From assembly GCF_009695745.1 (NCBI RefSeq), contig NZ_VUNH01000006.1, positions 1 to 64,000 of the forward strand: a stretch of DNA of 64,000 nucleotides. The letters run 5' to 3'. The translations under genes and the position numbers were made by a program. Positions 25,481-42,695 of this stretch are shown piece after piece. The notes under the pieces were generated by a model, which made no database searches, was not told where the DNA came from, and saw nothing but the letters and a program-made list of their open reading frames with translations. The DNA comes from Pyramidobacter porci. Lineage in GTDB: Bacteria > Synergistota > Synergistia > Synergistales > Dethiosulfovibrionaceae. How positions within the stretch are numbered: the first letter of the stretch is position 1; each line of letters begins with the position of its first letter.

Positions 25481-25496
25481 GTATCTCGATGCAAAC

Positions 25497-25755: not shown

Positions 25756-25820
25756 AGACACGACAGTCATGCCAGCATATCGACGCGGGACACTGGGACA
25801 CTCAGAAAGGAATGAACACA

Positions 25821-26192: not shown

Positions 26193-26309
26193 TGCAATCG
26201 CAGTCAGCAATCAGTCCATGGAAGTTCGCGGCATGAGCATCACAGGAAACTGCCGCGCACGGCAAAACCTATCGTAACAAGCAGCCGAACAGCAAAACAA
26301 CAAACAGAG

Positions 26310-26344
26310 AGCGAGCTATCCCGAAATGGGATAGCTCGCTTTTT
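26310..26344 (+). terminator. Rho-independent terminator between the two DUF6876 genes
   Basis: Perfect 13-bp stem AGCGAGCTATCCC/GGGATAGCTCGCT with a GAAAT loop and TTTT, placed just before the ribosome site of copy 2. Confidence 0.88.
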
Positions 26345-26367
26345 CTATTCAAAAAGGAGGAATAACC

Positions 26368-26739: not shown

Positions 26740-26791
26740 ATAAATGCAGTCACAGTCAAACCCAGCTTAAACTATCAAGGAGGAAAATACC

Positions 26792-27831: not shown

Positions 27832-27914
27832 TCTACCTCATGGCGGGATTAGCGGCAAGCCTTGGCGTGCTCATCGCCATGGAAGACGAAAAGGAAGAGA
27901 ACGACGATGATTAG
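27828..27914 (+). CDS. 28-aa small membrane protein
   Basis: ATG 27828 overlaps the previous TGA. The product begins MIYLMAGLAASLGVLIAM and ends in an acidic tail EDEKEENDDD: one hydrophobic helix plus a charged end. AAGGA lies upstream. Similar tiny hydrophobic proteins are frequent in phage-like operons; no function can be given. Confidence 0.5.
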   Translation: MIYLMAGLAASLGVLIAMEDEKEENDDD

Positions 27915-28053
27915 CGCATTGACAGCGGCAGCCACGGGAGCGGCAGTGAAACTCTTTACCAAAGGCGTCATGCTCGGAATCGCCATTTACACGGCGCATA
28001 AGACGAACGGCAAAGGCGGCAAGGAGGGGCGGGACCGTCCCAGGCGCAAATAG
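27907..28053 (+). CDS. 48-aa small membrane protein with basic tail
   Basis: ATG 27907 lies inside the end of the previous small ORF (8-nt overlap), with GGAAGAG upstream. The product MISALTAAATGAAVKLFTKG continues with VMLGIAIYTAHKT and ends in a basic tail GRDRPRRK. One membrane helix is likely. Unknown function. Confidence 0.5.
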   Translation: MISALTAAATGAAVKLFTKGVMLGIAIYTAHKTNGKGGKEGRDRPRRK

Positions 28054-28067
28054 ATTGGATTACAGCT

Positions 28068-28103
28068 ATAGCGTCCGGCAGAAATGTCGGGCGCTATTTT
28101 TTT
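28068..28103 (+). terminator. Rho-independent terminator of the DUF1643 operon
   Basis: ATAGCGTCCGGC pairs with GTCGGGCGCTAT (two G-U pairs) and is followed by seven T. Confidence 0.85.
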
Positions 28104-28358
28104 CTATGAATGAATCTGAAAAATATAAAATTGTCGTTCGGACGATAAAATGCATTTTGAGTCATGTTGATTTGTTGTCTTTTTGTTGCATTGATAATCA
28201 AATATAAAATATACTGACTGGAAAAGAAGGCGGCTTTTTGAAAAAGAGATGAAATGCCATTGAAAAAAGATAACAAAAAGTAGTCATATGTAAACAGCGT
28301 TAATTTTATCGCGTTGTGGATAAGTTTTGCCATTAGCGATATTATCAAGAAGAAAAGA
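28104..28358. other. AT-rich gap without a gene
   Basis: Low-GC stretch before the promoter at 28359. A 140-codon open frame on the minus strand crosses it, but it has no ribosome site, unlikely composition and overlaps the structured RNA region, so it is not called. Confidence 0.5.
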
Positions 28359-28387
28359 TTGACAGGAAAGGTCAGACATGTTATCAT
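28359..28387 (+). promoter_or_regulatory. Strong sigma-70 promoter for the noncoding region
   Basis: Perfect -35 TTGACA (28359-28364), exactly 17 nt, and -10 TATCAT (28382-28387). Transcription would start at about 28394, immediately before the left arm of the long-range inverted repeat. Confidence 0.75.
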
Positions 28388-28393
28388 TCGCTC

Positions 28394-29010
28394 ATTCAAA
28401 ACGCAGACGGCCGCCTCCACAGGAGGTGTGAAAAGGCCAACTACGTATTGATTAAATTTTTTAAAGGGCAACCCGCCGAGATTAGTTCCGCTCTTGAACG
28501 CAGCACTGCAATGCATGAGTCGGACCTAAGACCGAAAGTGATTTCAGCGGAGACCCGTATTATATGAACAGGGCAACCCGCCGAGATTCGTCCCGCTTTC
28601 GGACGCAGCAGAGCGTAAGACGGACCTAATGCCGGAATTGATTTCAGCGGGGACCCACATTATATGAGCAGGGCACCCCTGGCAATCCCTTTCAACGCTT
28701 GAACGCTGTGTAACCGGTTGCGCAGGCAGAACTCAATAACCGACAAGGCGTCAGGCTGCGGTGCTCAGGAAATTGACAAGGACCACTTGCTAAAGCCGTT
28801 TCTTAGACGTCCGCCGCGTTGCAGCGCGTAAGCCGATCACACTGATACAGGTCATAAGAACCTGGACGGCTTTCAGCGGTCCGTATAATAATAGCAGTCT
28901 ATGGAGTGACGGAACCTCGCTAGTCGAGACCGCGCTAAAGAACCACGCACCATAGAGAAAATGAAAGACATATTATATATAATCTACGGCCTCCGTCTGC
29001 GTTTTGAGTA
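28394..29010 (+). ncRNA. Candidate large structured RNA, about 615 nt
   Basis: The region starts at a strong promoter and its ends pair perfectly over 15 bp (TCAAAACGCAGACGG at 28396-28410 with its complement at 28993-29007). Inside are many local helices: CCTCC/GGAGG (28414-28426), CGGTT/AACCG (28714-28740), AAAGCCGT/ACGGCTTT (28793-28873), CAGGT/ACCTG (28848-28864), TCTATGG/CCATAGA (28898-28956) and CTCG/CGAG (about 28916-28927). No frame is coding. Size and a closing stem recall the large ornate RNA classes of phages, but no known class was recognised. It could instead be the primase leader or a replication origin. Confidence 0.55.
28466..28895 (+). repeat. Tandem repeat units inside the structured region
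   Basis: Two units of 105 and 100 bp (28466-28570, 28571-28670) each begin GGGCAACCCGCCGAGATT and end TGATTTCAGCGG(A/G)GACCC then ATTATATGA(A/G)CAG. In each, CCGCCGAGAT can pair with the TTTCAGCGG end, closing the unit, and a GGACCTAA(G/T)(A/G)CC stem-loop lies inside. A third, expanded unit starts GGGCACCCC at 28671 and ends TTTCAGCGGTCCGTATAATAATAGCAG-like at about 28895. Confidence 0.75.
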
Positions 29011-29035
29011 ATTTTATAGATGGAGGAGTACAAAT

Positions 29036-31156
29036 ATGTACCACGATTCCGATTTTTCAGCTGACGAAAGAAACCGCTTGTGCAATCGCTGCCCGAAGTT
29101 CAAAGAGCTCTGCGAGCAGCAAAAGCAGGGTGAGCTCGACAAGAAACTGGCCAAGCTTGTTATAATGATGCTGGTCAGCGCCGGGAGATACCCGCTGGCT
29201 ATCGAGTTCGCCAAAAAGGCTCACGACAAGAAGCTGGCGCCTAAGTACTACAGATACTACCAAGGCCTGATCTTCAACAAAGAGTCGGCCCTTGTCGATG
29301 GTTTCGACTGCACGGACTTTGGCTGTACGGCAGAGGAGATCAAAAAATGCTTCTCACGTCAAGAGCTCGAAAGGCTGTACCCAAACGAGGACTTCTCGTT
29401 TCGAAAGGACAAAGAGACGGACGAACCTTTGAACTCGCCTCTGGAAATGCTCAGGTTCTTCAGGAGCGAACTGCCCGAGATCGGCATTTTCACCCGCTGG
29501 AACAAGGCCAACAACGTCTGGTGTCCTGACACGGGGAACTTCAACCCTAATCTTTATCTGGATTATGTGATGAGTTCTCTCCCGATCGTCTTGACTGAAG
29601 ACAATCCGCCGCAGCTCAGTGTGTACTGCAACGGAATTTGGAAGCAGCAGGATCTGCATTTGCGTGAAATCAATCAACTGCTCAGGATACACTACAATCG
29701 TGCCGCTCCCCACATGTGGAAGGGGTTCCCAAAGGAACTATGGCAAATGCTTCCGCAGGAATCCCCTTCATGCACGACCCTGAAGAGCGGTAAAAAATAC
29801 GTGAATGTACAGAACGGCCTTGTCTATTTCATGGACGGCGAACTGTATAAACGCTCTCATACTGACGAGGTGTACACGACCCGTCAGGTTCCAGTGCCGA
29901 TCAAGGAGGACTGCGAATGTCCGAACTTCGAATACTACCTTCAAAGCACGTTCCGTAACGACGAGGACCTCATCAAGGTCGTACAGGAAATGTGCGGCTA
30001 TCTCTTGCTTGACACCTGCAAGGCTGAAAAGATATTTTATCTCATAGGCCCGGGCGGCAACGGTAAGTCAGTGCTTTTGGGTGTTTTGGAAGCGCTTTTG
30101 GGGCACGCACAAGGCACTATCGGCTTGTCGCTGGAGGAAATCAACACCAATAAATTTGCCCGCTTCAAGTTGATTGGAAAGTTCGCCAACCTCAGCAATG
30201 AGAGCGAGGCCAGCGGCAAAGACGCTGTGAACCTCAAAGTTTCCAGGGCTCTTGCAAGCGGAAACTCCGTTTGGGTTGAGGATAAAGGGAAGCCAGGCTT
30301 CATGGCAAAGCTGACTGCGAAGCAAGTTTATTGCATGAACGAGATTATGCCCGTCAAAAACGGCACCTCTCAAGGAAACCTGCGCAGAGCGCTAATCATA
30401 CCTTTTGAGCAGGTATTCTCGTCGAATCCGGCAGAAGGCGAGCTGGCCAAGGACGTCAACCTTCTGGACAAGCTCCTTGGTGAGCTGCCCGCAATCCTCA
30501 GATGGGCGCTCGAAGGAGCCATGCGCCTGATTGAGAACAACTTCGAATTCTCGCATTCGGACAAGGTCGAGGAGTATTTCAAAATCTATGCGAACGCGGT
30601 CGATGAGCTGCAGATGAAGCGATTCGTCGAGGAGAAGATGATCCGCACCACCGGCAAGCCGACTAGCACAACTGAAATTTATAATGCGCATAGGCTCTGG
30701 TGCGAACAAAACGGCATAGAACTGCCGGACAAGGTTTCCGGAAACAAGTACTGGGATGCTCTTAAAAGCGCACTAAAAAGCCTCGGCGAGAAGAAAATCG
30801 AGAAGGTCGGCTGTAACGGAAACAGGGTCCATCTGAAAGGCTGGCGCTTGCGCACCGAAGACGATATCGACATCGATATCGAAATCGGCGAGGATACCAA
30901 GGAGGCTTCGACTCTCGACCAGATCATGGCTGAGATGCAGAAGTTGAGCCCCGAGAGGCAGCAAAGATACCTTGACAAACTGCGTACCCGCAATGCCGAA
31001 AAGGCCGCCAAAAAGGCGCAGTCGGACGAGGAAGTCGCCGAGGCCGAATCCAAGCCTAAAAAGGCCCAAAAGGCCGCCAAAAAGGCGCAGTCTGACGAGG
31101 AAGTCGATGAGGCCGAATCCCAGTCCAAGTCCAAGAAGGCCAAAAAGGTAAAGTAG
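29036..31156 (+). CDS. P4-type primase/helicase-like replication protein
   Basis: A 706-aa protein. The N-terminus has a Cys-rich start (NRLCNRCPKFKELC). The middle and C-terminal parts match the phage/plasmid primase P4 family: Walker A LIGPGGNGKSVLLGVLEALLG near 338, KFANLSNESEASG, KQVYCMNEIMPVKNG and RRALIIPFEQVF. The last 70 residues are low complexity with two KKAQSDEEV repeats. It probably starts replication of the excised element as a superfamily 3 helicase; a primase catalytic domain was not clearly seen. GGAGGAG precedes ATG 29036, and a TATAAT lies at 28978-28983. Confidence 0.85.
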   Translation: MYHDSDFSADERNRLCNRCPKFKELCEQQKQGELDKKLAKLVIMMLVSAGRYPLAIEFAKKAHDKKLAPKYYRYYQGLIFNKESALVDGFDCTDFGCTAEEIKKCFSRQELERLYPNEDFSFRKDKETDEPLNSPLEMLRFFRSELPEIGIFTRWNKANNVWCPDTGNFNPNLYLDYVMSSLPIVLTEDNPPQLSVYCNGIWKQQDLHLREINQLLRIHYNRAAPHMWKGFPKELWQMLPQESPSCTTLKSGKKYVNVQNGLVYFMDGELYKRSHTDEVYTTRQVPVPIKEDCECPNFEYYLQSTFRNDEDLIKVVQEMCGYLLLDTCKAEKIFYLIGPGGNGKSVLLGVLEALLGHAQGTIGLSLEEINTNKFARFKLIGKFANLSNESEASGKDAVNLKVSRALASGNSVWVEDKGKPGFMAKLTAKQVYCMNEIMPVKNGTSQGNLRRALIIPFEQVFSSNPAEGELAKDVNLLDKLLGELPAILRWALEGAMRLIENNFEFSHSDKVEEYFKIYANAVDELQMKRFVEEKMIRTTGKPTSTTEIYNAHRLWCEQNGIELPDKVSGNKYWDALKSALKSLGEKKIEKVGCNGNRVHLKGWRLRTEDDIDIDIEIGEDTKEASTLDQIMAEMQKLSPERQQRYLDKLRTRNAEKAAKKAQSDEEVAEAESKPKKAQKAAKKAQSDEEVDEAESQSKSKKAKKVK

Positions 31157-31173
31157 CCGCGGGATAATATATA

Positions 31174-31204
31174 GGAGGGCATGGGGCGTGACTCCATGCC
31201 CTCC
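31174..31204 (+). terminator. Terminator-like hairpin after the primase gene
   Basis: GGAGGGCATGG/CCATGCCCTCC, 11-bp perfect stem followed by TATTTC. Confidence 0.6.
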
Positions 31205-31237
31205 TATTTCCAGTGATACGGATTGAGGTGCCCGTGC

Positions 31238-31444
31238 ATGAAGATTGAGCCAGTGAAGACCAAAAAAATAAAAAGGAGCTCTTTGGAAGATTACGAAAGC
31301 ATTAAAATCAAAGATCTCCGACAGATGATGCGAGAAAACGACGGTTCAGAAAGTGCCAGAACTTTGAACGATCTGACACCTGCAATCAACCTGCTGTACT
31401 TCATTCATCAGCGTCTGATGGACGAGAACGAGGAAGAGGATTAG
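31238..31444 (+). CDS. 68-aa hypothetical protein
   Basis: A charged small protein starting MKIEPVKTKKIKRSSLEDYE at ATG 31238 (GAGG site 9 nt upstream), ending in DENEEED. Its stop lies 4 nt before the next gene, so it is co-transcribed with the recombinase. It could be a small accessory or directionality factor; no homology was recognised. Confidence 0.5.
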   Translation: MKIEPVKTKKIKRSSLEDYESIKIKDLRQMMRENDGSESARTLNDLTPAINLLYFIHQRLMDENEEED

Positions 31445-31448
31445 GGCG

Positions 31449-32975
31449 ATGGACCGTCAAGAGAAGAAAAAGCTCCTTGCCAAGTTTGGAAAAATACCGC
31501 TCGACAAGAGAGCCGTCATCTACGCCAGATATTCGACGGATGTTCAAACCCCTGAAAGTATCGAACGCCAGGTTCAGCTCTGCAGCGATTACGCGCAGGA
31601 AAACGGCCTGACGGTTCCCAAGGCTTATTGCGACAAAGCGAAAAGCGGCACTCAGACAACTACCCGCTACAACTATAACCAAATGCTGGAAGACAGCGCC
31701 GAAGGACTGTTCTCGAAGATCATCGTATTCAAACTCGACCGTTTTTCTCGGAATCTAAGAGATTTCTTAAACGATCAGTACACATTAAATGAAAACGGCG
31801 TACAAATTCTATCGACACTGGAAATTTTGCCCGACGGCATATCAGGAAAGCTCGTCAAGTATAGCCTCATAATTGGCGCGGAACTGTACTCGGATTCGGT
31901 AGCGGATCATACGTCCTCGGAAATGTACCGCAATGCCAGGCAGGGCAACTATAACGGCGGAAAAATCCCACTCGGCTACAGAGCAGTAGAGGCTGAAGGC
32001 CGCAAGAAGTATGTCATAGATGACAAGGAGTCCGAGATTGCCGCCTTCATCTTTGAGCAGTATGCCCAGGGAAAATCCTACAGCGACCTTGTGAAACTGC
32101 TTGACCAGCGGGGCTGGAGGACGAAAAACGGCGACCGGTTCAGTACCGGCAGTTTCAACAGCATCTTCAATAACCGTATTTATATCGGCGAGTATGGCTA
32201 CGGCAAAGGCACAAGCAAGGCCGTCGTTACTAAGATACCAGAGCTGCAGATCGTGCCTGACAAGATTTTTGAGAAAGTCCAGAAAAGAATGGCCCAGAAC
32301 AAGGTCCTCGCCGGACGCCGGAGGGCCAAACGCGGATACATCCTCTCAGGATTTGTCAAATGTGGCGTATGCGACAGTAATATGCACCACGAGCCGATCA
32401 GGTCAAAGGGTAAAGCAGCGTATGATTGCTACCGTTGCCCGAATACAAAGAAAAATGACGAGCACGGGGAAAAGCTGTGCGACAATCTCAGAATCAGAAG
32501 GAAGTATCTGGAACGGTATGTCATGGACAAGATCTTCCGTGATCTGTTCGGCAACGCTTCGCTTCAGGACGTGACCGAGAGACTGAATGCGCTCATACTC
32601 GAACAGGCTCAGGACAGTGAACGTGAGCTTGCGGAAAAGGAAAAGCTGCTGAAAAAGAACCAGCAGGCCTTAAAGCGTCTGAAGACACAGAAAGCTGACG
32701 GAAAGCACGGCCTTGACTGGGATGATGAGGTCGAAAAAACTAATGCGAATATCAGGGAGCTCAGGGAGGCAATAAGTAAGCTCGAAAACAAACGCGACAG
32801 CATGACCTGCAAGCCGAACGATGTTATGAGGCTGATTGGACTTATCCGAAGCGCGGAAATCAAGAAACTTCAAGCGCCTGAGATTTACGAGTTTATGGAA
32901 GCCTATCTCGATTCAGTGACAGTCGATAAGGAACATGTGCGAGTCAAGCTGAATCTCAACAAGATCGTGGAGTAG
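31449..32975 (+). CDS. Large serine recombinase, copy A
   Basis: A 508-aa recombinase. Resolvase domain: VIYARYSTD with catalytic Ser29, VQLCSDYAQENGL and IIVFKLDRFSRNLRDF. The recombinase domain follows (GGKIPLGYRAVEAEGRKKYV, FNSIFNNRIYIGEYGYG), then a zinc ribbon (CGVCDSNMHH...CPNTKKNDEHGEKLC) and a coiled coil (about 380-450). Such enzymes integrate and excise elements between short att sites. It starts 4 nt after the 68-aa gene. Confidence 0.92.
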   Translation: MDRQEKKKLLAKFGKIPLDKRAVIYARYSTDVQTPESIERQVQLCSDYAQENGLTVPKAYCDKAKSGTQTTTRYNYNQMLEDSAEGLFSKIIVFKLDRFSRNLRDFLNDQYTLNENGVQILSTLEILPDGISGKLVKYSLIIGAELYSDSVADHTSSEMYRNARQGNYNGGKIPLGYRAVEAEGRKKYVIDDKESEIAAFIFEQYAQGKSYSDLVKLLDQRGWRTKNGDRFSTGSFNSIFNNRIYIGEYGYGKGTSKAVVTKIPELQIVPDKIFEKVQKRMAQNKVLAGRRRAKRGYILSGFVKCGVCDSNMHHEPIRSKGKAAYDCYRCPNTKKNDEHGEKLCDNLRIRRKYLERYVMDKIFRDLFGNASLQDVTERLNALILEQAQDSERELAEKEKLLKKNQQALKRLKTQKADGKHGLDWDDEVEKTNANIRELREAISKLENKRDSMTCKPNDVMRLIGLIRSAEIKKLQAPEIYEFMEAYLDSVTVDKEHVRVKLNLNKIVE

Positions 32976-33041
32976 GGGCGCGTCTGTATCGAGAGGGGCC
33001 TCCTAGGTCTCACAGGGCTCGTTCCTGAGCTGCATACTAAC

Positions 33042-33078
33042 ACAGCCGGATATGTCCGATATGGGCATATCCGGCTGT
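33042..33078 (+). terminator. Terminator-like hairpin after recombinase A
   Basis: ACAGCCGGATATG pairs perfectly with CATATCCGGCTGT (13 bp). The T-run is weak. Confidence 0.6.
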
Positions 33079-33579
33079 CGTGTATGAAAGAGTGATACGG
33101 GGGACACCTTGTGATATGAGCGCAGAGTGAACGTAATGAGTGCAGGTATTTCTATCTTGAGATCAATATATATTCAAAAATAATCAATTACAACCCGATT
33201 TTCGCCCTGCGGTCGAAAATCAGGACCCGCTTGACGCTGTTAGATTATGGCGGGCGTAACAGGAAGCATGGGGAAGAAGATGTTGGTGATAAATTATCCT
33301 CCCAGTACACCCAGTACTGATTTGTGAGTAAGCCGAATCACATAGCTAGAATACACACATTAGAATATAGCGGCGAATGTGTTTTTAGTGTATTTAGTAA
33401 GTGTGGGAATATAACTAAAGAGTTTTTGTCTAGAAAATGAGGTGGCATAATAATATGAGAAAAGAATATCAGGGGAAGTGAAAATATATTGGGTGACTGT
33501 ATGTAATGAGAGCATAAGTCAATGCCAGAGGCATAATTGTTGAAACTGAAAGATTTATAGAAGTGAGGGCGGGAAGGCA
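33079..33579. other. Gap at the left edge of the low-GC cassette
   Basis: No gene was seen. It contains the hairpin repeat at 33194-33224 and then AT-rich DNA up to the methyltransferase. An 80-codon minus-strand frame in it has no ribosome site and is rejected. Confidence 0.5.
33194..33224. repeat. Left flanking hairpin repeat of the defence cassette
   Basis: GATTTTC...GAAAATC hairpin with conserved loop bases CCC and CGGT. It is 26/31 identical to 40470-40500 on the other side of the low-GC cassette. Confidence 0.65.
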
Positions 33580-35196
33580 ATGAGGGTGGCTGATTTTTTC
33601 TGCGGTGGGGGAGGTTTTTCAGAAGGCTTCCGCCAAGCGGGATTTGAAATCGTATTTGCCGTCGACAAATGGGAGCCGGCAGTCAAAACATATAGAGGTA
33701 ATAAGCCGGGAGTAAATGTGATTCAGGATGATGTTATCCGTATCGCCAATCTTCCGGATGAAGAATTTGAAGCATTGGTGCCAGATTCTGAAGTCATCAT
33801 TGGTTCACCCCCATGTCAGTCCTTTTCGCACTCGAACAAGTCAGGAACTGCGGACAAGTCGATTGGCATCCAGTTGATTGAAGCATACCTGAAAATTGTC
33901 GCTCGAAAGAAGTTTAAACAAGGATCATGCTTAAAATACTGGGTGTTGGAGAATGTTCCGGCAGTCAAGGATTACATCAAAGAGGAATACACTGCTGCAG
34001 ACTTTGAACTAGACGGTGATTTCGTTTTACGGCCTCATGATGGGGCATCAGGAAAATACAATGCGAAATACTACGGTGCTCCAACAAATAGGGAGCGTTA
34101 TCTATGTGGGGAGTTCCCTGAACCAATAAAAACGAAAAGTAATCAAGACGTAACGACTTTGCGGCAAGTCCTTGATTCACTAGGTGACCCATTGAGGATG
34201 GATGATGCCCCAATAACAGACATCAATTATCCGAACCTTACTTTGGAATCAAATCAAGTTACCGACCAGCATTACATTTATGAACTGGCAGAGTTTGAGT
34301 ACAAAACTGCAAAGCGTCTGAAACAAGACAAAGGCTATATGGGAAAGATGTCTTTCCCAGAAAACCTTGATAAACCTGCGCGAACCGTCATGGCGACTAT
34401 GACTGCAAGTGCTAGAGAAGCCATGATCTTGGGATATGGTGTTGGGCGATATCGATTGCCAACAGTCAGAGAAACGGCATGTATGATGAGCTTCCCAATA
34501 GATTTTTGGTTCTATGGGGAATCAAAGGGCGTTAAGCACACCCTTGTCGGAAATGCTGTTCCGCCAAAACTCTCATATGCAGTCGCAGTAGCAATTGCAG
34601 CAGCAGAAAATGAGCCTGTTCCCAAAGAGTACATCCCGATCCAGCACGAACAGAATAATGAACAGCTTCAATTTTTTAATTTGAACGGTGCCAAATTTGA
34701 AATCCGGAAAGAACAACCCAAAAAGAAAACGGCAAAATTCAAATATCATATTCCATACTTGATTTATTCAGCATACCGGGTCGAATTAACAAATTACCAT
34801 TCGAGCTTTGAGTCTGGTGCGTTTAAGTGGAATTCAGAAATTCACTATAGTCAAGGAAAAGATAAAGCGAAAGTACTAACGCCCCGTATAACAAAAAGAG
34901 ATATTCCAAGTGTACTCTTTGTAAAAATCGAGTCATTTATTCATGAAATATCTCGCAGTTTGCCAACAACAAATCGAAGATTTCAGAAGCTATATTGCAT
35001 GACAACAGAGGATCGAAAAGCCGCAGAGAGACTTGGCCCATATGAACTGCTAGAGAGTATCAGGCAATTCATAGATGACACTATTCCAAAAGAGGACCAG
35101 AGCAAGGAAGTTGAAGTGATCCACGGTACTAATCTGCCGTTTGCCATCCTGGTTGGATACTACACCATGTCAAGGATAGTAAACAAAATGCAGTAG
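33580..35196 (+). CDS. DNA (cytosine-5-)-methyltransferase
   Basis: A 538-aa C5 methyltransferase. Motif I ADFFCGGGGFSEGFRQAG is at 4-21, motif IV GSPPCQSFSHSN (catalytic Cys near 79), motif VI WVLENVPAV near 125, motif VIII region APTNRERYLCGEF and the C-terminal motif X VGNAVPPKLSYAVA near 330. About 170 extra residues after motif X have no recognised domain and may be fused for contact with partner proteins. First gene of a low-GC operon with a ParB-like protein, a helicase, DUF3883 and Vsr. The target sequence is unknown. Confidence 0.9.
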   Translation: MRVADFFCGGGGFSEGFRQAGFEIVFAVDKWEPAVKTYRGNKPGVNVIQDDVIRIANLPDEEFEALVPDSEVIIGSPPCQSFSHSNKSGTADKSIGIQLIEAYLKIVARKKFKQGSCLKYWVLENVPAVKDYIKEEYTAADFELDGDFVLRPHDGASGKYNAKYYGAPTNRERYLCGEFPEPIKTKSNQDVTTLRQVLDSLGDPLRMDDAPITDINYPNLTLESNQVTDQHYIYELAEFEYKTAKRLKQDKGYMGKMSFPENLDKPARTVMATMTASAREAMILGYGVGRYRLPTVRETACMMSFPIDFWFYGESKGVKHTLVGNAVPPKLSYAVAVAIAAAENEPVPKEYIPIQHEQNNEQLQFFNLNGAKFEIRKEQPKKKTAKFKYHIPYLIYSAYRVELTNYHSSFESGAFKWNSEIHYSQGKDKAKVLTPRITKRDIPSVLFVKIESFIHEISRSLPTTNRRFQKLYCMTTEDRKAAERLGPYELLESIRQFIDDTIPKEDQSKEVEVIHGTNLPFAILVGYYTMSRIVNKMQ

Positions 35197-35254
35197 CAGA
35201 AAAACGAAATGAACGATTTGCAGTCGACAATAGTCCAGGAAAGGAATGAAAACA

Positions 35255-36568
35255 ATGCCTGTAATTAACAGAGATTTCCCGCTTTCTGCTGAGGCAAGAA
35301 AGGCGCATCTCAAAGCGATATTGGAAGATAGTAAACCTATCAGTTCAGTTAAAGTCCCTGGCCATGGTTCTCAAAACGTATATAGAATACCACTTCAGTT
35401 TTTGTCATATAACCCATATAACACTCGGTTTTTGTCACAGGCGAAAACGTGGCAGAAACGGCTTGGCCGTCGACTTAGCAACGAAAATCCTCGGGATGTG
35501 GAGAAAATAGAGGAGTTCTTATGGTCATATAAAAAAGACAAGAATGAAAACACGATCAATTCACTGATCAAGGAAGGACAGCTTCAACCAGGAGTTGTAA
35601 CCATTGATGGCTTGATTCTTGCGGGTAACCGTAGATTTAGATTGCTGAATGAAATCGATAGGAATCCGGATAAGTACAATACACAGCATGCAAATATCGA
35701 AGGGTTAAAGTGCTTTGAGGCGGCAATACTTGGCACAGTACTTACGGAAAAAGAGATTGTTAGATATGAGTCGTTTTACCAATACGGGGCAGAAGATAAA
35801 GTCGATTACGACCCTATTCAAAAGTATATTGCTGCACATGACCAGAAAGACTATGGATTTGAATTGAGCGAGATAGCTGCTAATTTCGCTGCATTAACAA
35901 ACGGTGATATAAAAATCGTTCAAAGATGGTTAGATGTTTATGCATTGATGGCGGAGTACTTGGAATATATTGGTGAGCCAGAAATCTATACTGCATTATT
36001 TGGGAATGAGGAGTCTTTCCTAAACTTACTAGACACAAAAAAGAGTCTGGAACGAGGAAGGACAAAGAATGAAAGTTGGGACTATGACGATATGGATATT
36101 GCCGATTTACAGCTGAGGTATTTTGACTATATCCGGGTGGGAAAGAGTACTCATGATTTTAGAATTTTCAAAAAAATATTCTTGAACAAGAGTAGGTGGA
36201 AAGATTTCAACAAAAGCGTCGATGAAACTGTTGGGAAAGCATCGGAAGAAATATTTAGTATTGATGAATACCGCAGCAAGTATCCTGATGAAACCGAAGA
36301 TACTATTTCGGAGATACGAAATAATGATTTTCGTGAAAAAGCCGAAAAGCCGTTGAATCAGCTTTATGGCACTGAAAACGCGTATTTAGTGAGCAAAGCA
36401 GACGAAGAAACGCCATATAAAACTGCACAACAGGCTTATCAGAAACTCGAAAAACTTTCAACTTTTCTAGATCTTGGTTTAGACAGGATATCTGATCTTG
36501 ATAAATTGTTAGATAAGGTCAGAGAAATCCAGAAGTTGGTTGGAAAAATCAAAATGAAAATTGATTAG
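35255..36568 (+). CDS. ParB/Srx-like domain protein of the defence cassette
   Basis: A 437-aa soluble protein. Residues about 50-140 show a ParB/sulfiredoxin-type fold signature: YRIPLQFLSYNPYNTRF, then GQLQPGVVTIDGLILAGNRR with the GNRR element typical of ParB-like nucleotide-binding or nuclease proteins. The rest is helical and charged. Start ATG 35255 is preferred over 35246 because AAAGGA stands 9 nt upstream. ParB-like proteins in modification loci bind CTP/ATP or DNA; its exact role is unknown. Confidence 0.7.
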   Translation: MPVINRDFPLSAEARKAHLKAILEDSKPISSVKVPGHGSQNVYRIPLQFLSYNPYNTRFLSQAKTWQKRLGRRLSNENPRDVEKIEEFLWSYKKDKNENTINSLIKEGQLQPGVVTIDGLILAGNRRFRLLNEIDRNPDKYNTQHANIEGLKCFEAAILGTVLTEKEIVRYESFYQYGAEDKVDYDPIQKYIAAHDQKDYGFELSEIAANFAALTNGDIKIVQRWLDVYALMAEYLEYIGEPEIYTALFGNEESFLNLLDTKKSLERGRTKNESWDYDDMDIADLQLRYFDYIRVGKSTHDFRIFKKIFLNKSRWKDFNKSVDETVGKASEEIFSIDEYRSKYPDETEDTISEIRNNDFREKAEKPLNQLYGTENAYLVSKADEETPYKTAQQAYQKLEKLSTFLDLGLDRISDLDKLLDKVREIQKLVGKIKMKID

Positions 36569-36577
36569 GGACATGAG

Positions 36578-38521
36578 ATGAGAATAAAAATCGGTATTCT
36601 TGGAGATAACGAATCGTTTGTAATAACCCCTATTGATTTTAACGTGACGGATATAAGAGGGATTAAAGTCTATTTGAAGAATTTGAACGGTGGGCATGTG
36701 GATAATGACAAAATAATCATTCCCATCGTCAATGTCGATGTCCTAGACCTATATCATAAGACCGTTGAATTGTTTGAAGGAAGGTTTAAATGTCATATTG
36801 AGAAAGATGCCGATGCTGGTTCATTGCTAGGCAATGCAGTAAACGAGGAAGAACGATTCCGGGCTTTTTCAGCTAAAGCATATGCTATTAGGAATAATAA
36901 TATTGATAGCAGCGAATTGACTGCTTTTTTGGACTGTGTTAAACAGGATAGCTTTATTCGAACCCTGAAGCCGTTTCAAATCTTATCTGCGTATCATCTT
37001 GCGTTTTCTCACAACGCTTGCAATTTCTCAGTCCCTGGTGCGGGAAAAACATCCACAGTATTAGCGGCTTATGCTTATTTAGCTAGCTGCAATGAAATCG
37101 AAAAACTATTGGTAGTTGGACCACTTGCTTCATTTTTAGCATGGAAAAAAGAGTATTTCTACTGTTTCGGAACCGCCCCAAAAGTGCTTGAAATCATGGG
37201 GAATACCCCTGACAAGCGTATTGAAAAAGAACTAATGCGTTCAAGCATTGATTTAGATCTGATTCTGGTTAGCTATGGGAGTGTTAGCCGTCAACTTGAT
37301 AAATTATTGTTCTTCCTCAGAAACAACAGGACCATGGTAGTTCTCGATGAAGCCCATAGAATAAAAAACGTCGAAGACGGGGTTCAGAGCAATGCAACAC
37401 TTCAGCTATCTCCTTTTGCGAGGTCAAGAGCGGTTTTGACGGGGACTCCTGCACCGAACAGTTATGTTGATTTGTTTAACCTCTATAAGTTCATCTGGCC
37501 ATCACATAATATAATCGGGTTTTCAGTTCCTCAACTTGCAAACATGAGCAAGCGTGAAGGCGATCCTAGGATTAGTGAATTGATTTCTAGGATTTCTCCT
37601 TTCTATATTCGAATTAGGAAAAGCGACTTGGGGCTACCTGAACCGTGGTTTCTTCCCCCAAAGAGTGTTCAAATGTCTCCTATTCAAGATAGGATTTACG
37701 ATGCTATTTCCAGAATGGCTGTTGGAAGACTAGAAGATGGAGTATCGTCTCCCACAAATAGACTATCGGCGATCATTAGGTTGAGACAAGCTGCTTCGAA
37801 CCCAGCTTTACTAAATCGCGGGCTTGATGATTATTATGATGGATTAGATGAATCTGTTCCAAGAGTGGCACTTGATAGTAATCTCAATGTAAGTGATGAG
37901 ATCATGGATCTTATAAGGACTTACAAAGAGACAGAAATCCCCAGCAAATTCATTGAGGCCGGAGAACTGGCTAAGAGAGTTATAGCAGAAGGCGGCAAGC
38001 TAGTGATTTGGTGTGAGTTTGTTGGCACGTGTGATGACCTAAGCGATTACCTAAGTAAGTCTGGCGTCGAGAATAGGATCCTTTATGGAAAAACTGATTA
38101 CCTAGACCGCGAAAGAATAATAAATGAATTTACTGACAAAGAGAAGCCGTCCGCCTTCAATGTCGTTATAGCAAATCCTCACGCAGTTGGTGAATCGATT
38201 TCACTCCATGTAACTTGTCACAATGCTTTATATCTTGAGCAGAGCTTCAACGCTGGAACCTATATGCAGTCAAAGGATAGAATTCATCGTGTTGGCTTAC
38301 TGCAGAGTGATATAACACGGTATTATTACATTCATTCTGCAAATACTATCGATGGTGTTGTGTTTGAACGTGTCAACACAAAAGAGAAAAGAATGCTTGA
38401 GCTAATCGAGAGTCAGGATATACCGCTGATTGCGAATAATCAAGACTTCCTTGAAGACAATGAAGACGATATCAAGGCAATTATACGAGGGTATTATGAG
38501 TACCGATCTAAACATATTTGA
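36578..38521 (+). CDS. SNF2-family helicase/translocase
   Basis: A 647-aa superfamily 2 ATPase. Motif I SVPGAGKTSTVLAAYAYL is near 150, motif Ia LLVVGPLASFLAWKKE, motif II VLDEAHRIKN near 257, motif III RAVLTGTPAPNSYVDLF near 285, motif V ANPHAVGESISLH and motif VI YMQSKDRIHRVGLLQ near 565. This is the Snf2 pattern of double-stranded DNA translocases found in restriction and phage-defence loci. About 145 N-terminal residues have no recognised domain. It overlaps the next gene by 26 nt. Confidence 0.88.
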   Translation: MRIKIGILGDNESFVITPIDFNVTDIRGIKVYLKNLNGGHVDNDKIIIPIVNVDVLDLYHKTVELFEGRFKCHIEKDADAGSLLGNAVNEEERFRAFSAKAYAIRNNNIDSSELTAFLDCVKQDSFIRTLKPFQILSAYHLAFSHNACNFSVPGAGKTSTVLAAYAYLASCNEIEKLLVVGPLASFLAWKKEYFYCFGTAPKVLEIMGNTPDKRIEKELMRSSIDLDLILVSYGSVSRQLDKLLFFLRNNRTMVVLDEAHRIKNVEDGVQSNATLQLSPFARSRAVLTGTPAPNSYVDLFNLYKFIWPSHNIIGFSVPQLANMSKREGDPRISELISRISPFYIRIRKSDLGLPEPWFLPPKSVQMSPIQDRIYDAISRMAVGRLEDGVSSPTNRLSAIIRLRQAASNPALLNRGLDDYYDGLDESVPRVALDSNLNVSDEIMDLIRTYKETEIPSKFIEAGELAKRVIAEGGKLVIWCEFVGTCDDLSDYLSKSGVENRILYGKTDYLDRERIINEFTDKEKPSAFNVVIANPHAVGESISLHVTCHNALYLEQSFNAGTYMQSKDRIHRVGLLQSDITRYYYIHSANTIDGVVFERVNTKEKRMLELIESQDIPLIANNQDFLEDNEDDIKAIIRGYYEYRSKHI

Positions 38522-39395
38522 TTGTCTGCTAGATCCTTCAGAAATGTTCACCTTTTTTCAAAAAATCGGAACAGTTTTGAAGAATGATCGAGATATTGCT
38601 TCTGAACAGGTACGCGGACAGGCATTACACAACACATTATTGCTGCTGCAGAATACTGCAATGATTCAGCGGCATGATGATGAGTATATAAAGCTCTCAG
38701 ATTGCCAAACGTATGAATCTTTTTATTCTGCTCTGATGGCGAGCCTAAAGGATACATATGCCAATGAAGTCGCTACGATCATAAACTGTGATAAACACTA
38801 TGATGAAGCAAAGAACCAGTTTTTCATTTATGTAAATGACATTCCCCTGAGATATATGGGGCTAGCAATGCTGTTAGAACAGTCAGGCGAATTTGAAAGA
38901 ATCAGGAATAGAGAATACTTCATCGGAATCGATAACTACCGGAAGGTAATAAAGAAAAAGCCGTTAGTCACAATTGAAGAGTTGCAAAAAAAGCTTCGTC
39001 GTGACATTGAGTATGGAGAGCAAGCGGAACAGTTTGCATGGAAGTATGAGGTAACCAGGCTAAGGCAAGCAGGAATCAACAAGGAACCATTAAGTATTTC
39101 TAGTGTTGATGTTATGGCTGGTTATGATATGATTTCTTATGAAAGCAAATCATCCAATGGTTATGACAGATTTATTGAAGTGAAAGCGATTTCACATTCC
39201 GGTTTTTATTGGTCAAGAAATGAATATGAGACCGCAAAACTCAAAGCTGAACAGTATTATTTGTATCTTGTGGATTTGAAAAGAATCAGCGATTCTGGAT
39301 ATACGCCAGAAATAATACAGAACCCAGCAATAATTATAATGGAAAATGGTGGATGGTTTGTAGAAGCAGAATCGTATCACATCAAGCAAGTGTGA
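38496..39395 (+). CDS. DUF3883 domain protein (PD-(D/E)XK-like)
   Basis: A 299-aa protein starting MSTDLNIFDCLLD at ATG 38496 (GAGG upstream). The C-terminal third is DUF3883: GYDMISYESKSSNGYDRFIEVKA near 208-230, with the D...E-x-K pattern of PD-(D/E)XK nucleases, then FYWSRNEYETAKLKAEQYYL. It is a likely DNA-cleaving effector, or a DNA-end binder if the site is degenerate. It overlaps the helicase gene, so the two are probably made in fixed ratio. Confidence 0.75.
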   Translation: MSTDLNIFDCLLDPSEMFTFFQKIGTVLKNDRDIASEQVRGQALHNTLLLLQNTAMIQRHDDEYIKLSDCQTYESFYSALMASLKDTYANEVATIINCDKHYDEAKNQFFIYVNDIPLRYMGLAMLLEQSGEFERIRNREYFIGIDNYRKVIKKKPLVTIEELQKKLRRDIEYGEQAEQFAWKYEVTRLRQAGINKEPLSISSVDVMAGYDMISYESKSSNGYDRFIEVKAISHSGFYWSRNEYETAKLKAEQYYLYLVDLKRISDSGYTPEIIQNPAIIIMENGGWFVEAESYHIKQV

Positions 39396-39415
39396 TTTGT
39401 ATAGGAGGCTCTCCT

Positions 39416-39835
39416 ATGAAACACCGGAAGCTATCAACGACACCAGAAATTTCTAAGCGTATGTCAAATGTCCATCTGAAGGAGAGCAAGGCAGAAATCA
39501 CGCTGGCTAAGGAACTCTGGAAAAGAGGATTTCGATATCGTAAGAATTATAGAAAACTTCCTGGTTCTCCAGACATCGCCATCCTTAAACACAATATCGC
39601 AGTCTTTGTTGACGGGGAATTCTGGCATGGAAAAGACTGGGAAGACAAAAAGAATCGATTAAAAAACAATAGGTTATACTGGATAGAGAAAATTGAAGAA
39701 AATATGGCAAGAGATAGAAAAAACGATGTCTTGCTTATGGGAAAGGGGTGGCTCCCTATCCATTTTTGGGAAATGGAAGTCATTACAGATTTATCTTCTT
39801 GCATTGATATAATTGTTAATTTAGTAAGTGAGTAG
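39416..39835 (+). CDS. vsr: Very short patch repair (Vsr) endonuclease
   Basis: A 139-aa Vsr protein: MSNVHLKESKAEITLAKELW, RYRKNYRKLPGSPDIAIL (catalytic Asp in PD) and VDGEFWHGKDW, with the IPVHFWE-like PIHFWEME end. Vsr nicks T:G mismatches that arise when 5-methylcytosine is deaminated, so it is the normal companion of a C5 methyltransferase and protects the host genome from mutation. A close relative can serve as a restriction nuclease. ATG 39416 follows AGGAGG. Confidence 0.9.
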   Translation: MKHRKLSTTPEISKRMSNVHLKESKAEITLAKELWKRGFRYRKNYRKLPGSPDIAILKHNIAVFVDGEFWHGKDWEDKKNRLKNNRLYWIEKIEENMARDRKNDVLLMGKGWLPIHFWEMEVITDLSSCIDIIVNLVSE

Positions 39836-39905
39836 ATTTGTCATAATGAATATGTCAGTTATGGTAAGTCTTCGATGTGGTAATTAAAGTACGAGGAGGG
39901 GTAGG

Positions 39906-40229
39906 ATGAATATCCCAAAGTTGAATAAAAGCGAAAGGGATCGAGAGTATAATCTTTACAATACGGTCCAGCGCGAGGCTGTTGTTAAAGCATTTCTGTT
40001 TGAAGGTATGCATCATAGACAGATAGATTCTAAGATCTTAGGGCTTGACAGCGATTATACTCACGGGTTCCAGTCGATGGGGATCCTACATTATCTGGGG
40101 CTGGACAGGCATTTTAAAGGTCTTTTCAGAGATATGTCAGTTAGCGATGCAATCAATGAGTTAAAATCGACCAAAGACTCGTCTTATTTCGATTTGATAA
40201 CGATTTTAGAGGGGCATGTCATTCGCTAA
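39906..40229 (+). CDS. 107-aa orphan protein of the defence cassette
   Basis: A soluble 107-aa protein with QREAVVKAFLFEGMHHRQID, LGLDSDYTHGFQSMGILHYL and HFKGLFRDMSVSDAINEL. The pattern suggests a helical DNA-binding domain but no family was recognised. ATG 39906 has a strong ACGAGGAGG site. It is 70 bp after vsr and shares its low GC. Confidence 0.6.
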   Translation: MNIPKLNKSERDREYNLYNTVQREAVVKAFLFEGMHHRQIDSKILGLDSDYTHGFQSMGILHYLGLDRHFKGLFRDMSVSDAINELKSTKDSSYFDLITILEGHVIR

Positions 40230-40258
40230 TATTTATTATGGAACGATTATTGAATTTA

Positions 40259-40329
40259 ACCTCCCAAGCCACCCTAAATAGTCGATTCTATACAGAGATT
40301 TAGCTAGGGTAGCTAGGGTGACCTTTTTG
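40259..40329 (+). terminator. Long terminator hairpin at the cassette end
   Basis: The left arm from ACCTCCCAAGCCACCCTAAAT can pair with ATTTAGCTAGGGT...GGGTGACC, and five T follow. The right arm and tail (GGGTGACCTTTTTGT) are identical to those of the hairpin at 25611-25679. Confidence 0.6.
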
Positions 40330-40425
40330 TATTTGATGATAAGCTGATGACAGGCTCAGACTAGACTCTATAGGTATCATACCTATCAACTAATAATAAA
40401 AATAAATATTCAAATTGTTTGGTAT

Positions 40426-40702
40426 CCCAACTTAGTCCTTCGGGACTAAGTTGGGGCCCACTGTAAGAACCTGATTTTCTCCCGACGGTTGAAAATCAGG
40501 TCTTTTTTATATTGATGGATACCATTGGAATAAAGTCGTTTTCTGTGTCCCAGAGCTCCCAGAGATCATAGATACAGTAAGAGTGAGGCATTGGGATTCA
40601 ATCAATAAATACAAAAAATCAAAATACAACTCACAACCCCAGTTTTTTCCTACGGAAAAATACTGTGGCCCCTTACGCTGAAAGCAGATTTGCTTTCAGC
40701 GT
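40426..40702. repeat. Array of four hairpins
   Basis: CCCAACTTAGTCC/GGGACTAAGTTGGG (40426-40455), the repeat GATTTTC/GAAAATC with TTTTTT tail (40470-40507), CAGTTTTTTCC/GGAAAAATACTG (40640-40665) and ACGCTGAAAGC/GCTTTCAGCGT with a TGTTTTTA tail (40675-40710). Each is bounded by short C- and G-rich blocks (AACCC, GGNCCC). The second is the partner of 33194-33224. No gene lies in 40230-40851. Confidence 0.65.
40470..40500. repeat. Right flanking hairpin repeat of the defence cassette
   Basis: Matches 33194-33224 at 26 of 31 positions, in direct orientation. It also has a T-run on its right and can act as a terminator. Confidence 0.65.
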
Positions 40703-40851
40703 TGTTTTTATTGGATTGATGATGATGATTTCAGATTCTGTGTCCCGCGCCTCCCATCTCCAAATCCGTAAAGTCAAAAAATGGACTGGATCTTATTATT
40801 ATGATCAAAATATGATCGACCATATTTTCTTATAGAATCGGGAGGAATTTC

Positions 40852-42465
40852 ATGTCAGCAAGGAGAGCCAGGATAATCAGCAACACGGCAGTCATCTATG
40901 CGAGATATTCAAGTACCAATCAGCGAGAGGAATCCATTGAGGCACAGGTCAGAGCATGCCAGGAATACGCAAAGAGAAACGGACTTGTCATCGTCGATAT
41001 CTATGCGGATTCAGCCAAGACAGGAACCAATGCGGAGCGTGAAGAATTTCAGCGCATGATCGCCGACAGCGCTACAGGAAAGTTCGAGTTCGTCATCGTC
41101 CATAAACTCGACAGATTCAGCAGAGACCGATACGACAGCATAGCCTATAAGCGCAAGCTCAAACTCAACGGCGTAACACTGCGTTCCGTACTGGAAAACC
41201 TCGACGGATCGCCCGAGAGCCTGATACTCGAATCATTGCTTGAAGGCATGGCAGCCTATTACTCACAGAACCTTGCGAGAGAGGCATTGAAAGGAATGAA
41301 GGAAAACGGTTACCGCTGTATGCACAACGGGGGAATACCGCCGTATGGATATGACGTTGACAAAGAAACAAGAAAGTACGTCATCAACGAAGAGGAGGCG
41401 ATGGTAGTACGGTACATATTCAGCAGTTACGCCGACGGAGTGGGGTACAACCAGATCATCAGATATCTGAACGCCAACGGCTACCGCTCAAAACGGGGAA
41501 ATCCCTTCGGCAAGAACAGCATCCATGACCTGCTGAAAAACATCCGCTATACAGGAATCTATACATTCAATCTCAGAAAGGAGAAAGATGCAGTCGGAAA
41601 CAGAAACCACAGACCAAAATCCGAAGAAGAGCGCATCATGATCGAAGGAGGAATGCCGGCGATAATAGACAAAGATACCTTTGACAGAGTCCAAATGCAG
41701 ATACGCAGGAACAAACGACTCGCTGCCTGTGAAAAAGCCCATGAACCTTACCTGTTGTCTGGACTGATATACTGCGGTGAATGCAAAGGGACAATGTGGG
41801 GCAGCAGGATCAAAGACCGTCACGGCAACATCACACGTTTCTATGTATGTAGTACCAGAGACTACAAGAAACACTGCGACAATAGAAGCATAAGGAAGGA
41901 AGTGATCGAAGGATTCGTCCTGGCGCAGCTGGAGCGTGATATATTCAGTCATCAGGGAATAGAAAAATTACGCGTCAGCCTTATCCTGTACAGACAGAGA
42001 AGACAGGCAACAATCGTCGAAGAGAAAGAAAGACTGATATCGGAAGGAGAAGAGATCAAGCATAAGATCCAGAAGATCGTCGAACTCGTCTCGCAGAGCG
42101 GAATAACAATCGGAACAGTAAGCGATGAGATAAAGCTATTGGAAGAAAAACGCCGTCAAATCGCAGATCAGATCGATAAGCTCAATAAAGAGGCAAGATT
42201 GCTGATTCTATCGCAACGACAGCTCGAAGGCATGAAAGAACACGGGAAGGAAGTGAAGGAAAGGAAAAATCTCAAGAAACTGCGCCAGATAATATCGTAC
42301 TATGTCGAAAGCGTTGCAGTCTATCATGACAGGATCGAGATAACATACAAATTCGCCCTGCCTGATAAGCAAGCCGACGGAATCATACCTATGACAGTCG
42401 TAAGAGACCTTGCGCAAGTCAAAGAGGAGTTCAAAGCGCCTCGCAAGTCCAGGAAAGTAGTATGA
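40852..42465 (+). CDS. Large serine recombinase, copy B (probable integrase)
   Basis: A 537-aa recombinase. Catalytic domain: AVIYARYSSTNQREESIEAQ with Ser20, VIVHKLDRFSRDRYDS and LLEGMAAYYSQNLAREALKG. Recombinase domain: GGIPPYGYDVDKETRKYVI and LLKNIRYTGIYTFN. A zinc ribbon YCGECKGTMWG...CDNRSI and a coiled coil (about 375-470) follow. It lies 160 bp from attR, the usual place of the integrase, so it is the better candidate for integration than copy A. GGGAGG precedes ATG 40852. Confidence 0.93.
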   Translation: MSARRARIISNTAVIYARYSSTNQREESIEAQVRACQEYAKRNGLVIVDIYADSAKTGTNAEREEFQRMIADSATGKFEFVIVHKLDRFSRDRYDSIAYKRKLKLNGVTLRSVLENLDGSPESLILESLLEGMAAYYSQNLAREALKGMKENGYRCMHNGGIPPYGYDVDKETRKYVINEEEAMVVRYIFSSYADGVGYNQIIRYLNANGYRSKRGNPFGKNSIHDLLKNIRYTGIYTFNLRKEKDAVGNRNHRPKSEEERIMIEGGMPAIIDKDTFDRVQMQIRRNKRLAACEKAHEPYLLSGLIYCGECKGTMWGSRIKDRHGNITRFYVCSTRDYKKHCDNRSIRKEVIEGFVLAQLERDIFSHQGIEKLRVSLILYRQRRQATIVEEKERLISEGEEIKHKIQKIVELVSQSGITIGTVSDEIKLLEEKRRQIADQIDKLNKEARLLILSQRQLEGMKEHGKEVKERKNLKKLRQIISYYVESVAVYHDRIEITYKFALPDKQADGIIPMTVVRDLAQVKEEFKAPRKSRKVV

Positions 42466-42623
42466 TCGAAAATAGTTCCCGATGCTCCCTAGCGCATAGA
42501 TACAATTTTGACGAATCGATTAAACGTTGACGTGCGCAAAATAAACTCGTATCGAGCCTCCCTCGGCTCCCGCTAAAGATTCCCATCAAGCAGTTGCAGG
42601 CAAGGCTGCCCTGATCCGCCTGA

Positions 42624-42686
42624 GATACTAGACCGACAGATAACTATTTGGTCTAGGGAGCACATAGGGATGGGTTACCTCCACCA
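42624..42686. other. Right attachment site (attR) of the element
   Basis: GATACTAGACCGA (42624-42636), an inverted pair CTAGACC...GGTCTAG (42628-42656), then TTACCTCCACCA (42675-42686), the same 12 bp as the tRNA-Ala 3' end. The remaining DNA 42466-42623 shows no gene. Confidence 0.65.
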
Positions 42687-42695
42687 GACGAGTGT

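What the first reader, a model, noticed from the sequence alone, without database searches (positions are those of the whole stretch)
33580..40229. Low-GC defence-like cassette: C5 methyltransferase, ParB/Srx, SNF2 helicase, DUF3883, Vsr and a 107-aa orphan
Five or six tightly packed same-strand genes (gaps of 9 to 70 bp, one 26-bp overlap) combine a cytosine methyltransferase with an extra 170-residue C-terminal domain, a ParB/Srx-like protein, a SNF2 translocase, a PD-(D/E)XK-like DUF3883 protein and Vsr. Methyltransferase plus Vsr is classical, but the ParB-SNF2-DUF3883 set does not match DISARM, BREX, classical type I-III or the Z1/AIPR-type loci as I know them. It may be a translocase-dependent restriction system using DUF3883 or Vsr as nuclease.
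Basis: partly seen in the sequence, partly recalled or inferred. Interest (0 to 1): 0.85.

Follow-up and report, generated by a model that had tools for sequence, protein, structure and literature searches.

The report
ParB–SNF2–DUF3883 restriction-modification cassette
This is a five-gene bacterial DNA-defence cassette, carried on a mobile island, in which a DNA methyltransferase is teamed with a ParB-like DNA clamp, a DNA motor and a nuclease; the same team recurs across many phyla, yet no curated family or paper held here describes it.

Summary
Five intact, same-strand genes at 33580–39835 encode a C5 methyltransferase, a ParB-fold protein, an SNF2 ATPase, a DUF3883 nuclease with intact D…ExK site, and Vsr. 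The 107-aa orphan is not core.

The set is not a chance neighbourhood. From ParB homology alone, 96 of 101 next genes are SNF2 and 80 of 97 following genes are DUF3883, across at least eight phyla. The 26-bp SNF2/DUF3883 overlap recurs, and the three proteins co-diverge (r 0.90–0.94).

The module sits beside a C5 methyltransferase plus either a recognisable restriction enzyme (mostly BanI-like; also BglII-, Sau3AI/MutH- and Mrr-like) or, as here, a ~195-aa methyltransferase extension ("EXT") without detectable fold relatives. EXT and the BanI-like enzyme never occur together (36 versus 43 contexts, 0 both).

Best reading: an ATP-driven restriction system in which methylation protects the host and EXT or the REase reads unmethylated sites. 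ParB and SNF2 then load and move, and DUF3883 cuts. Vsr is the classical 5mC-repair accessory.

It is cargo of a 17.3-kb island in tRNA-Ala, absent from three same-genus genomes. I file it as a new, widespread R-M variant; the mechanism is inferred.

The parts
25406..25417 (.). 12-bp left repeat TTACCTCCACCA at the 3' end of tRNA-Ala(GGC); left edge of the island
   Evidence: same-genus genomes match the left flank up to window 25417
25418..42687 (.). ~17.3-kb integrative island in tRNA-Ala, absent from three same-genus genomes
   Evidence: window 25417 and 42675 map 12 bp overlapping in G113 (2584177 / 2584188) and likewise in G112; in G111 the left match begins at contig C6:28
29036..31156 (+). 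DUF5906/D5-like primase-helicase of the island (not part of the R-M system)
   Evidence: PF19263 E 8e-13
31449..32975 (+). large serine recombinase 1 of the island
   Evidence: PF00239, PF07508, PF13408
33580..35196 (+). C5-cytosine methyltransferase, 538 aa; catalytic domain residues 1-343 (PCQ motif with Cys79, ENV 124-126)
   Evidence: the only PF00145 gene of the genome
34609..35193 (+). EXT: MTase C-terminal extension (residues 344-538), conserved in type A loci in place of a REase gene; no fold match
35246..36568 (+). ParB-like protein, 440 aa: box I N56xxN59xR61, box II G127N128R129R130, ParB N+M-domain fold
36578..38521 (+). SNF2-family ATPase/translocase, 647 aa; GAGKT (154-158) and DEAH (257-260) conserved
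38496..39395 (+). DUF3883/NOV_C protein, 299 aa, predicted PD-(D/E)XK nuclease (D211...E228-V-K230); overlaps SNF2 by 26 bp
39416..39835 (+). Vsr-family endonuclease (ORF from 39353, likely start 39416), accessory
39906..40229 (+). 107-aa orphan, related to the N-terminal domain of HNH endonucleases; not part of the conserved unit
40852..42465 (+). large serine recombinase 2, next to the right edge of the island (candidate integrase)
42676..42687 (.). 12-bp right repeat TTACCTCCACCA; right edge of the island

Best explanation
The cassette is a multi-gene restriction-modification system built around a ParB-SNF2-DUF3883 effector module. The C5 methyltransferase marks host sites. Its C-terminal extension EXT fills the role that a separate type II REase plays in sister loci: it reads (or possibly nicks) unmethylated sites. 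The ParB-like protein, a predicted nucleotide-switched DNA clamp, is loaded near such a site. The SNF2 protein moves on the DNA using ATP, and DUF3883, a PD-(D/E)XK nuclease whose gene overlaps SNF2, cuts. Vsr repairs T:G mismatches left by 5-methylcytosine deamination. Shown computationally: gene content, conservation as a unit, intact catalytic motifs, ParB fold, exchange of EXT for REases. Inferred: order of events, clamp loading, translocation, DNA cutting, and that EXT is a reader rather than a nuclease.
For: Linkage by ParB homology alone: SNF2 next in 96/101, DUF3883 after it in 80/97, and beyond five genes only two stray SNF2 hits. SNF2/DUF3883 overlap of exactly 26 bp in 42 loci, as in the window. 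Co-divergence: Mantel r 0.94 (ParB-SNF2), 0.90 (ParB-DUF3883), 0.76 (ParB-MTase) over 69 loci. DUF3883 D/E/K invariant in 75 of 76; SNF2 Walker motifs conserved in at least 95% of 91. ParB fold. EXT versus BanI-like REase: 36 and 43 contexts, 0 both. Loci with neither mostly carry a BglII-like, Sau3AI/MutH-like or Mrr-like REase. BanI-like acidic residues are lost in the Bacteroidota members while DUF3883's are kept in all 35 type B loci. In EXT-only searches, 5 of 8 EXT MTases sit in the same cassette and the other 3 beside a NERD nuclease-helicase, again without a recognised type II REase gene.
Against: No experiment, and no direct evidence that ParB binds CTP, that SNF2 translocates or that DUF3883 cuts DNA. 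EXT has no known relative, so it could be a new nuclease, which would make the module an accessory. Most type B REases belong to families that normally work alone, so the module may not be the main nuclease there. Type B is one clade in the ParB tree, so the EXT/REase exclusion rests on few independent switches. Some loci have ParB-SNF2 without DUF3883 (type III R-M plasmids, L007, L022-L025).
Confidence: 0.5

Rival explanations
1. EXT is a new, fused type II restriction endonuclease domain (MTase-REase fusion), and ParB-SNF2-DUF3883 is a separable helper that follows any first cut, travelling from the break and degrading or re-cutting the invader.
For: EXT stands where sister loci have a REase gene. 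The ParB-SNF2(-DUF3883) module is attached to at least five REase kinds (BanI-, BglII-, Sau3AI/MutH-, Mrr-like, type III), so its job seems independent of the REase used. EXT has its own conserved polar residues, N24, N26, H47, N62 and Q126.
Against: The EXT model (pLDDT 91) matches no nuclease or other fold in PDB or the viral library. It has no recognisable nuclease motif, and its two subfamilies share few polar residues. BanI-like partners with a degraded site persist with the module.
Confidence: 0.3
2. The ParB-SNF2-DUF3883 module is a second-tier or abortive response: it senses failed or ongoing restriction and destroys host and phage DNA (or, through ParB-paired lipases, the membrane).
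For: Five loci carry a further ParB paralogue followed directly by a PGAP1-like alpha/beta-hydrolase; in four of them it lies beside a type A MTase. GmrSD, AAA_21 and Schlafen-type genes occur beside some loci.
Against: The hydrolase pair is rare and absent from the window. The tight co-divergence with DUF3883 and the 26-bp overlap point to one co-acting complex rather than an add-on.
Confidence: 0.12
3. The module protects the host: ParB-SNF2 removes restriction or repair complexes from the host's own temporarily unmethylated DNA (restriction alleviation), and DUF3883 is structural.
For: ParB-SNF2 pairs also occur with type III R-M systems without DUF3883.
Against: DUF3883's catalytic triad is invariant in 75 of 76, which is unexpected for a structural role.
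Confidence: 0.05
4. Chance adjacency of unrelated defence genes in a mobile island.
For: The genes lie on a horizontally acquired 17.3-kb island.
Against: The same order recurs in about 80 loci of many phyla, with co-divergence and a conserved overlap.
Confidence: 0.01

Closest known systems
Type II R-M with C5 methyltransferase and Vsr (Dcm-Vsr style; BanI, Sau3AI and BglII families)
   Same: C5 MTase, optional Vsr; sister loci carry BanI-like, BglII-like or Sau3AI/MutH-like REases
   Different: The window has no recognisable type II REase gene; it adds ParB, SNF2 and DUF3883 genes, and its MTase carries EXT
DISARM (class 2: DrmMII, DrmD SNF2, DrmA, DrmB, DrmC)
   Same: C5 MTase plus an SNF2-family helicase
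   Different: No DrmA/DrmB/DrmC; SNF2 scores 44 bits against a DrmD cut-off of 610; ParB and DUF3883 are absent from DISARM (established knowledge)
BREX-related and BREX helicase systems (PMC12839542)
   Same: MTase plus SNF2-type motor plus nuclease logic
   Different: Those use N6-MTase and a larger helicase with TUDOR and REase domains; that paper's text does not mention DUF3883
SNF2-DUF3883 fusions in R-M operons (Anantharaman et al. 2013, PMC3710099)
   Same: DUF3883 called a 'novel REase domain', tied to an SNF2 helicase in R-M operons
   Different: There a fusion in an operon with a HEPN-AAA protein; no ParB, EXT or REase-slot arrangement reported in the passages read
GmrSD / DndB / DdrB-type ParB-superfamily proteins in conflict systems
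   Same: ParB/Srx-type fold used in defence or conflict
   Different: Here a Spo0J/KorB-like ParB, whose best fold matches are 1vz0 and 8qa8/8qa9, nearly always tied to SNF2

Membership tests
ParB superfamily | ParB N-terminal fold with box I and box II, HTH M-domain | tested here: met
   Invariant N56xxN59xR61 and GNRR 127-130; top 14 PDB matches all ParB, best probability 1.00 but E only 0.006; weak HTH_ParB / ddrB-ParB hits in some members
ParB superfamily | CTP binding and clamp closure | not testable with these tools
   needs biochemistry
Type II R-M system | Type II methyltransferase | tested here: met
   PF00145 E 5e-36
Type II R-M system | Separate, recognisable ATP-independent REase gene | tested here: not met
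   none in the window cassette; present in sister loci
Type I R-M | HsdM N6-MTase, HsdS, HsdR | tested here: not met
   C5 MTase, no HsdS or HsdR
Type III R-M | Mod N-MTase and Res helicase-nuclease | tested here: not met
DISARM | DrmA, DrmB (DUF1998) and DrmC (PLD) present | tested here: not met
   no such genes; SNF2 far below the DrmD cut-off
BREX | PglZ, BrxC, PglX | tested here: not met
   no such families among the six proteins
Vsr (very short patch repair) | Vsr domain over curated cut-off, in one operon with a C5 MTase | tested here: met
   TIGR00632 115 bits, cut-off 98
DUF3883/NOV_C PD-(D/E)XK nucleases | NOV_C domain with conserved D...ExK | tested here: met
   PF13020 53.8 bits; D211/E228/K230 in 75 of 76; nuclease activity itself not tested
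ParB-SNF2-DUF3883 R-M cassette (defined here) | C5 MTase + ParB-like + SNF2 + DUF3883 in this order on one strand | tested here: met

The most novel reading that the evidence does not exclude
A new R-M type: an ATP-dependent (and probably CTP-dependent) restriction machine in which a ParB-family sliding clamp and an SNF2 motor, guided by a new-fold domain on the C5 methyltransferase itself, deliver a DUF3883 nuclease to DNA lacking 5-methylcytosine. To my knowledge it would be the first restriction system to use a ParB clamp.
Probability: 0.3. Interest if true: 0.88.

Novelty: new variant of a known kind. Interest (0 to 1): 0.74.

Why it matters
If right, a chromosome-segregation-type ParB clamp has been recruited into a restriction machine that recurs from Bacillota and Bacteroidota to Pseudomonadota and candidate phyla, mostly hidden behind 'hypothetical protein' labels. 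It gives a testable model for how a C5 type II methyltransferase can be coupled to an ATP-driven nuclease. The swap between EXT and several REase families is a natural experiment for finding what EXT does. EXT itself is a confidently predicted domain with no structural relative found.

Tried and rejected
Vsr as restriction nuclease: rejected, optional and variably placed.

The 107-aa orphan as core component: rejected, absent from L029 and L030; it is an HNH-endonuclease N-terminal-type domain and no HNH relic lies downstream.

EXT as a BanI-like REase remnant: no profile similarity (hhalign probability 0.1), no PDB sequence hit, no fold hit.

A viral-collection scan with the single ParB protein and one with EXT found nothing. 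ParB, DUF3883 and BanI-like profiles against PDB sequences gave only chance hits. Rfam: none.

A first att-site guess from a 26-nt repeat at 25656/40306 was dropped once the empty site was mapped. The careful ParB tree was not finished; the quick tree is used. REBASE and DefenseFinder were not available. Only about 0.25-2% of sampled genomes carry EXT, so a random genome sample gave few reciprocal tests.
Full report
Observation. The cassette is real and intact. On the + strand of a GC-rich Coriobacteriia-type genome (2.5 Mb, 22 contigs; the taxon is my inference), a 37-43% GC stretch holds six packed ORFs: C5 MTase 33580-35196, ParB-like 35246-36568, SNF2 36578-38521, DUF3883 38496-39395, Vsr 39416-39835 and a 107-aa ORF 39906-40229. 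Pfam confirms all but the ParB-like protein and the orphan. PADLOC and NCBIfam give only generic or distant hits.

Setting. The cassette is cargo of a mobile island. The left flank of the window up to the 3' end of tRNA-Ala (25417) and the right flank from 42675 lie next to each other, overlapping by 12 bp, in same-genus genomes G112 and G113; in G111 the right flank lies at the matching place on a contig that begins inside the left flank. The island therefore spans 25418 to about 42687 (17.3 kb), bounded by TTACCTCCACCA, with two large serine recombinases and a D5-like primase-helicase. None of 182 other genomes of the class, or 187 of the phylum search, has the ParB-like gene at E 1e-3. One Olsenella MAG has a 33% relative, L033. 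The closest relatives are Lachnospiraceae L029 (ParB 81% identical) and goat-gut L030 (76%). DNA similarity to them starts exactly at the MTase ATG and ends in Vsr, which delimits the unit as MTase-ParB-SNF2-DUF3883-Vsr.

Is it more than chance? A genome-collection scan with a ParB alignment gave 274 confirmed relatives, of which the 80 best were kept; 18 viral contigs, plasmids and phages were added. Neighbourhoods were read with HMMs made from the window proteins. Excluding the window, the gene after ParB is SNF2 in 96 of 101 cases and the next one DUF3883 in 80 of 97. At more than five genes distance there are only two stray SNF2 hits. The SNF2-DUF3883 overlap is exactly 26 bp in 42 loci, as in the window. 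Distances co-vary strongly: Mantel r 0.94 ParB-SNF2, 0.90 ParB-DUF3883, 0.76 ParB-MTase (n=69), 0.56 ParB-Vsr (n=22). A reverse scan of the viral collection with the DUF3883 profile returned 13 loci, 11 of them strong matches on contigs that mostly coincide with the ParB-bearing ones. The loci span at least eight phyla. Some loci are near-duplicates across collections (for example L011 and L048), so counts are not independent events.

Two architectures. Type A, the window's kind: a long C5 MTase (532-580 aa) with a C-terminal extension (EXT) directly before ParB, and no REase gene. Type B: a shorter C5 MTase and a ~300-aa BanI/DpnII-like REase gene directly before ParB, as in Streptococcus phage Javan191. 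EXT and the BanI-like gene are mutually exclusive: 36 and 43 ParB-centred contexts, 0 with both. Most remaining loci with a C5 MTase carry another REase: BglII-like (L050, L070, L071, L095), Sau3AI/MutH-like (L021, L033, L101, L104) or Mrr-like (L084). In a few (L031, L090, L094, L098) none was recognised. ParB-SNF2 without DUF3883 accompanies type III R-M genes in Lactobacillales. In the ParB tree type B is one clade (95*), type A falls in several clades with REase-bearing loci nested among them, and the window groups with L029 and L030 (100*) (quick tree, single run). The switches are therefore few, but more than one.

EXT. The AF2 model is confident (pLDDT 91, pTM 0.82), a beta region followed by helices. 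No PDB sequence hit, no PDB or viral fold match (best E 0.62 and 0.25), and no similarity to the BanI-like profile. Searched without ParB bias, EXT MTases occur in 1 of 398 further Bacillota and 7 of 395 further Bacteroidota genomes. EXT thus goes with ATP-driven nuclease machinery and was not seen with a type II REase gene. I take it as a site-reading or docking domain, but a new nuclease is not excluded.

Nuclease. DUF3883 keeps D211, E228 and K230 (and E178, E243) in 75 of 76 sequences: 27/28 type A, 35/35 type B, 13/13 others. In the BanI-like partners the acidic residue aligned with the glutamate of a genuine BanI-type enzyme (L130) is Asp in Clostridia and mostly Asn or Lys in Bacteroidota (aligned by eye), so their cutting may be dispensable there. 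DUF3883 has been called a novel REase domain, fused to SNF2 in R-M operons (PMC3710099). In L070 and L071 an HNH protein whose N-terminal domain resembles the window orphan directly follows SNF2.

ParB-like protein. The AF2 model (pLDDT 91) finds only ParB proteins among credible PDB matches: 1vz0 probability 1.00 with E 0.006, then KorB and Pnob8 ParB. The E-values are modest; the fold call rests on fourteen top hits all being ParB, plus box I and box II conservation. Among 68 members only a few reach weak ParB-superfamily Pfam hits, and no PADLOC or NCBIfam family fits. CTP binding is inferred.

Literature. No paper in the open-access library holds DUF3883 with SNF2, ParB and methyltransferase. 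Of the nine with ParB, SNF2 and restriction-modification, passages from six were read and none describes this set. Most subscription papers and REBASE were not searchable, so novelty is provisional.

Verdict. A conserved and, as far as tested, undescribed R-M variant. Gene content, unit and conservation are shown; reading, loading, translocation and cutting are inferred.

Noticed in passing
L056:9890-11976, L063:6384-8474, L064:9908-11962, L069:14349-16446, L079:9845-12006: A second ParB paralogue (~415 aa, own clade) directly followed by a PGAP1-like alpha/beta-hydrolase, in four of the five beside a type A MTase: a possible ParB-lipase effector pair.
   Followed up: partly
L144:4442-10379, L148:3713-9739, L147:558-3376: EXT-bearing C5 MTases paired with a NERD nuclease-helicase protein (and, in L144 and L148, an ~830-aa unknown protein and, in L144, a large helicase): a different EXT-linked system in Bacteroidota.
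   Followed up: partly
L070:5237-9238, L071:956-4906: ParB-SNF2 followed by an HNH endonuclease in place of DUF3883, with a BglII-like REase upstream; the HNH N-terminal domain is homologous to the window's 107-aa orphan.
   Followed up: partly
L007, L022-L025: ParB-SNF2 pair without DUF3883, downstream of type III R-M genes on Lactobacillales plasmids and related contigs.
   Followed up: partly
window 25418-42687: 17.3-kb island in tRNA-Ala with two large serine recombinases and a D5-like primase-helicase, absent from three same-genus genomes.
   Followed up: yes
L145 (SNF2 split into 435 and 255 aa with two ORFs between) and L142 (ParB frame broken): Apparently inactivated copies of the cassette (or assembly errors).
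   Followed up: no
L004:7893-15044, L008:7836-15089: Exiguobacterium plasmids: ParB plus a longer SNF2 (857-878 aa) followed by a ~1120-aa protein; L004's has Ig-like repeats, and there are no R-M genes immediately beside it.
   Followed up: no
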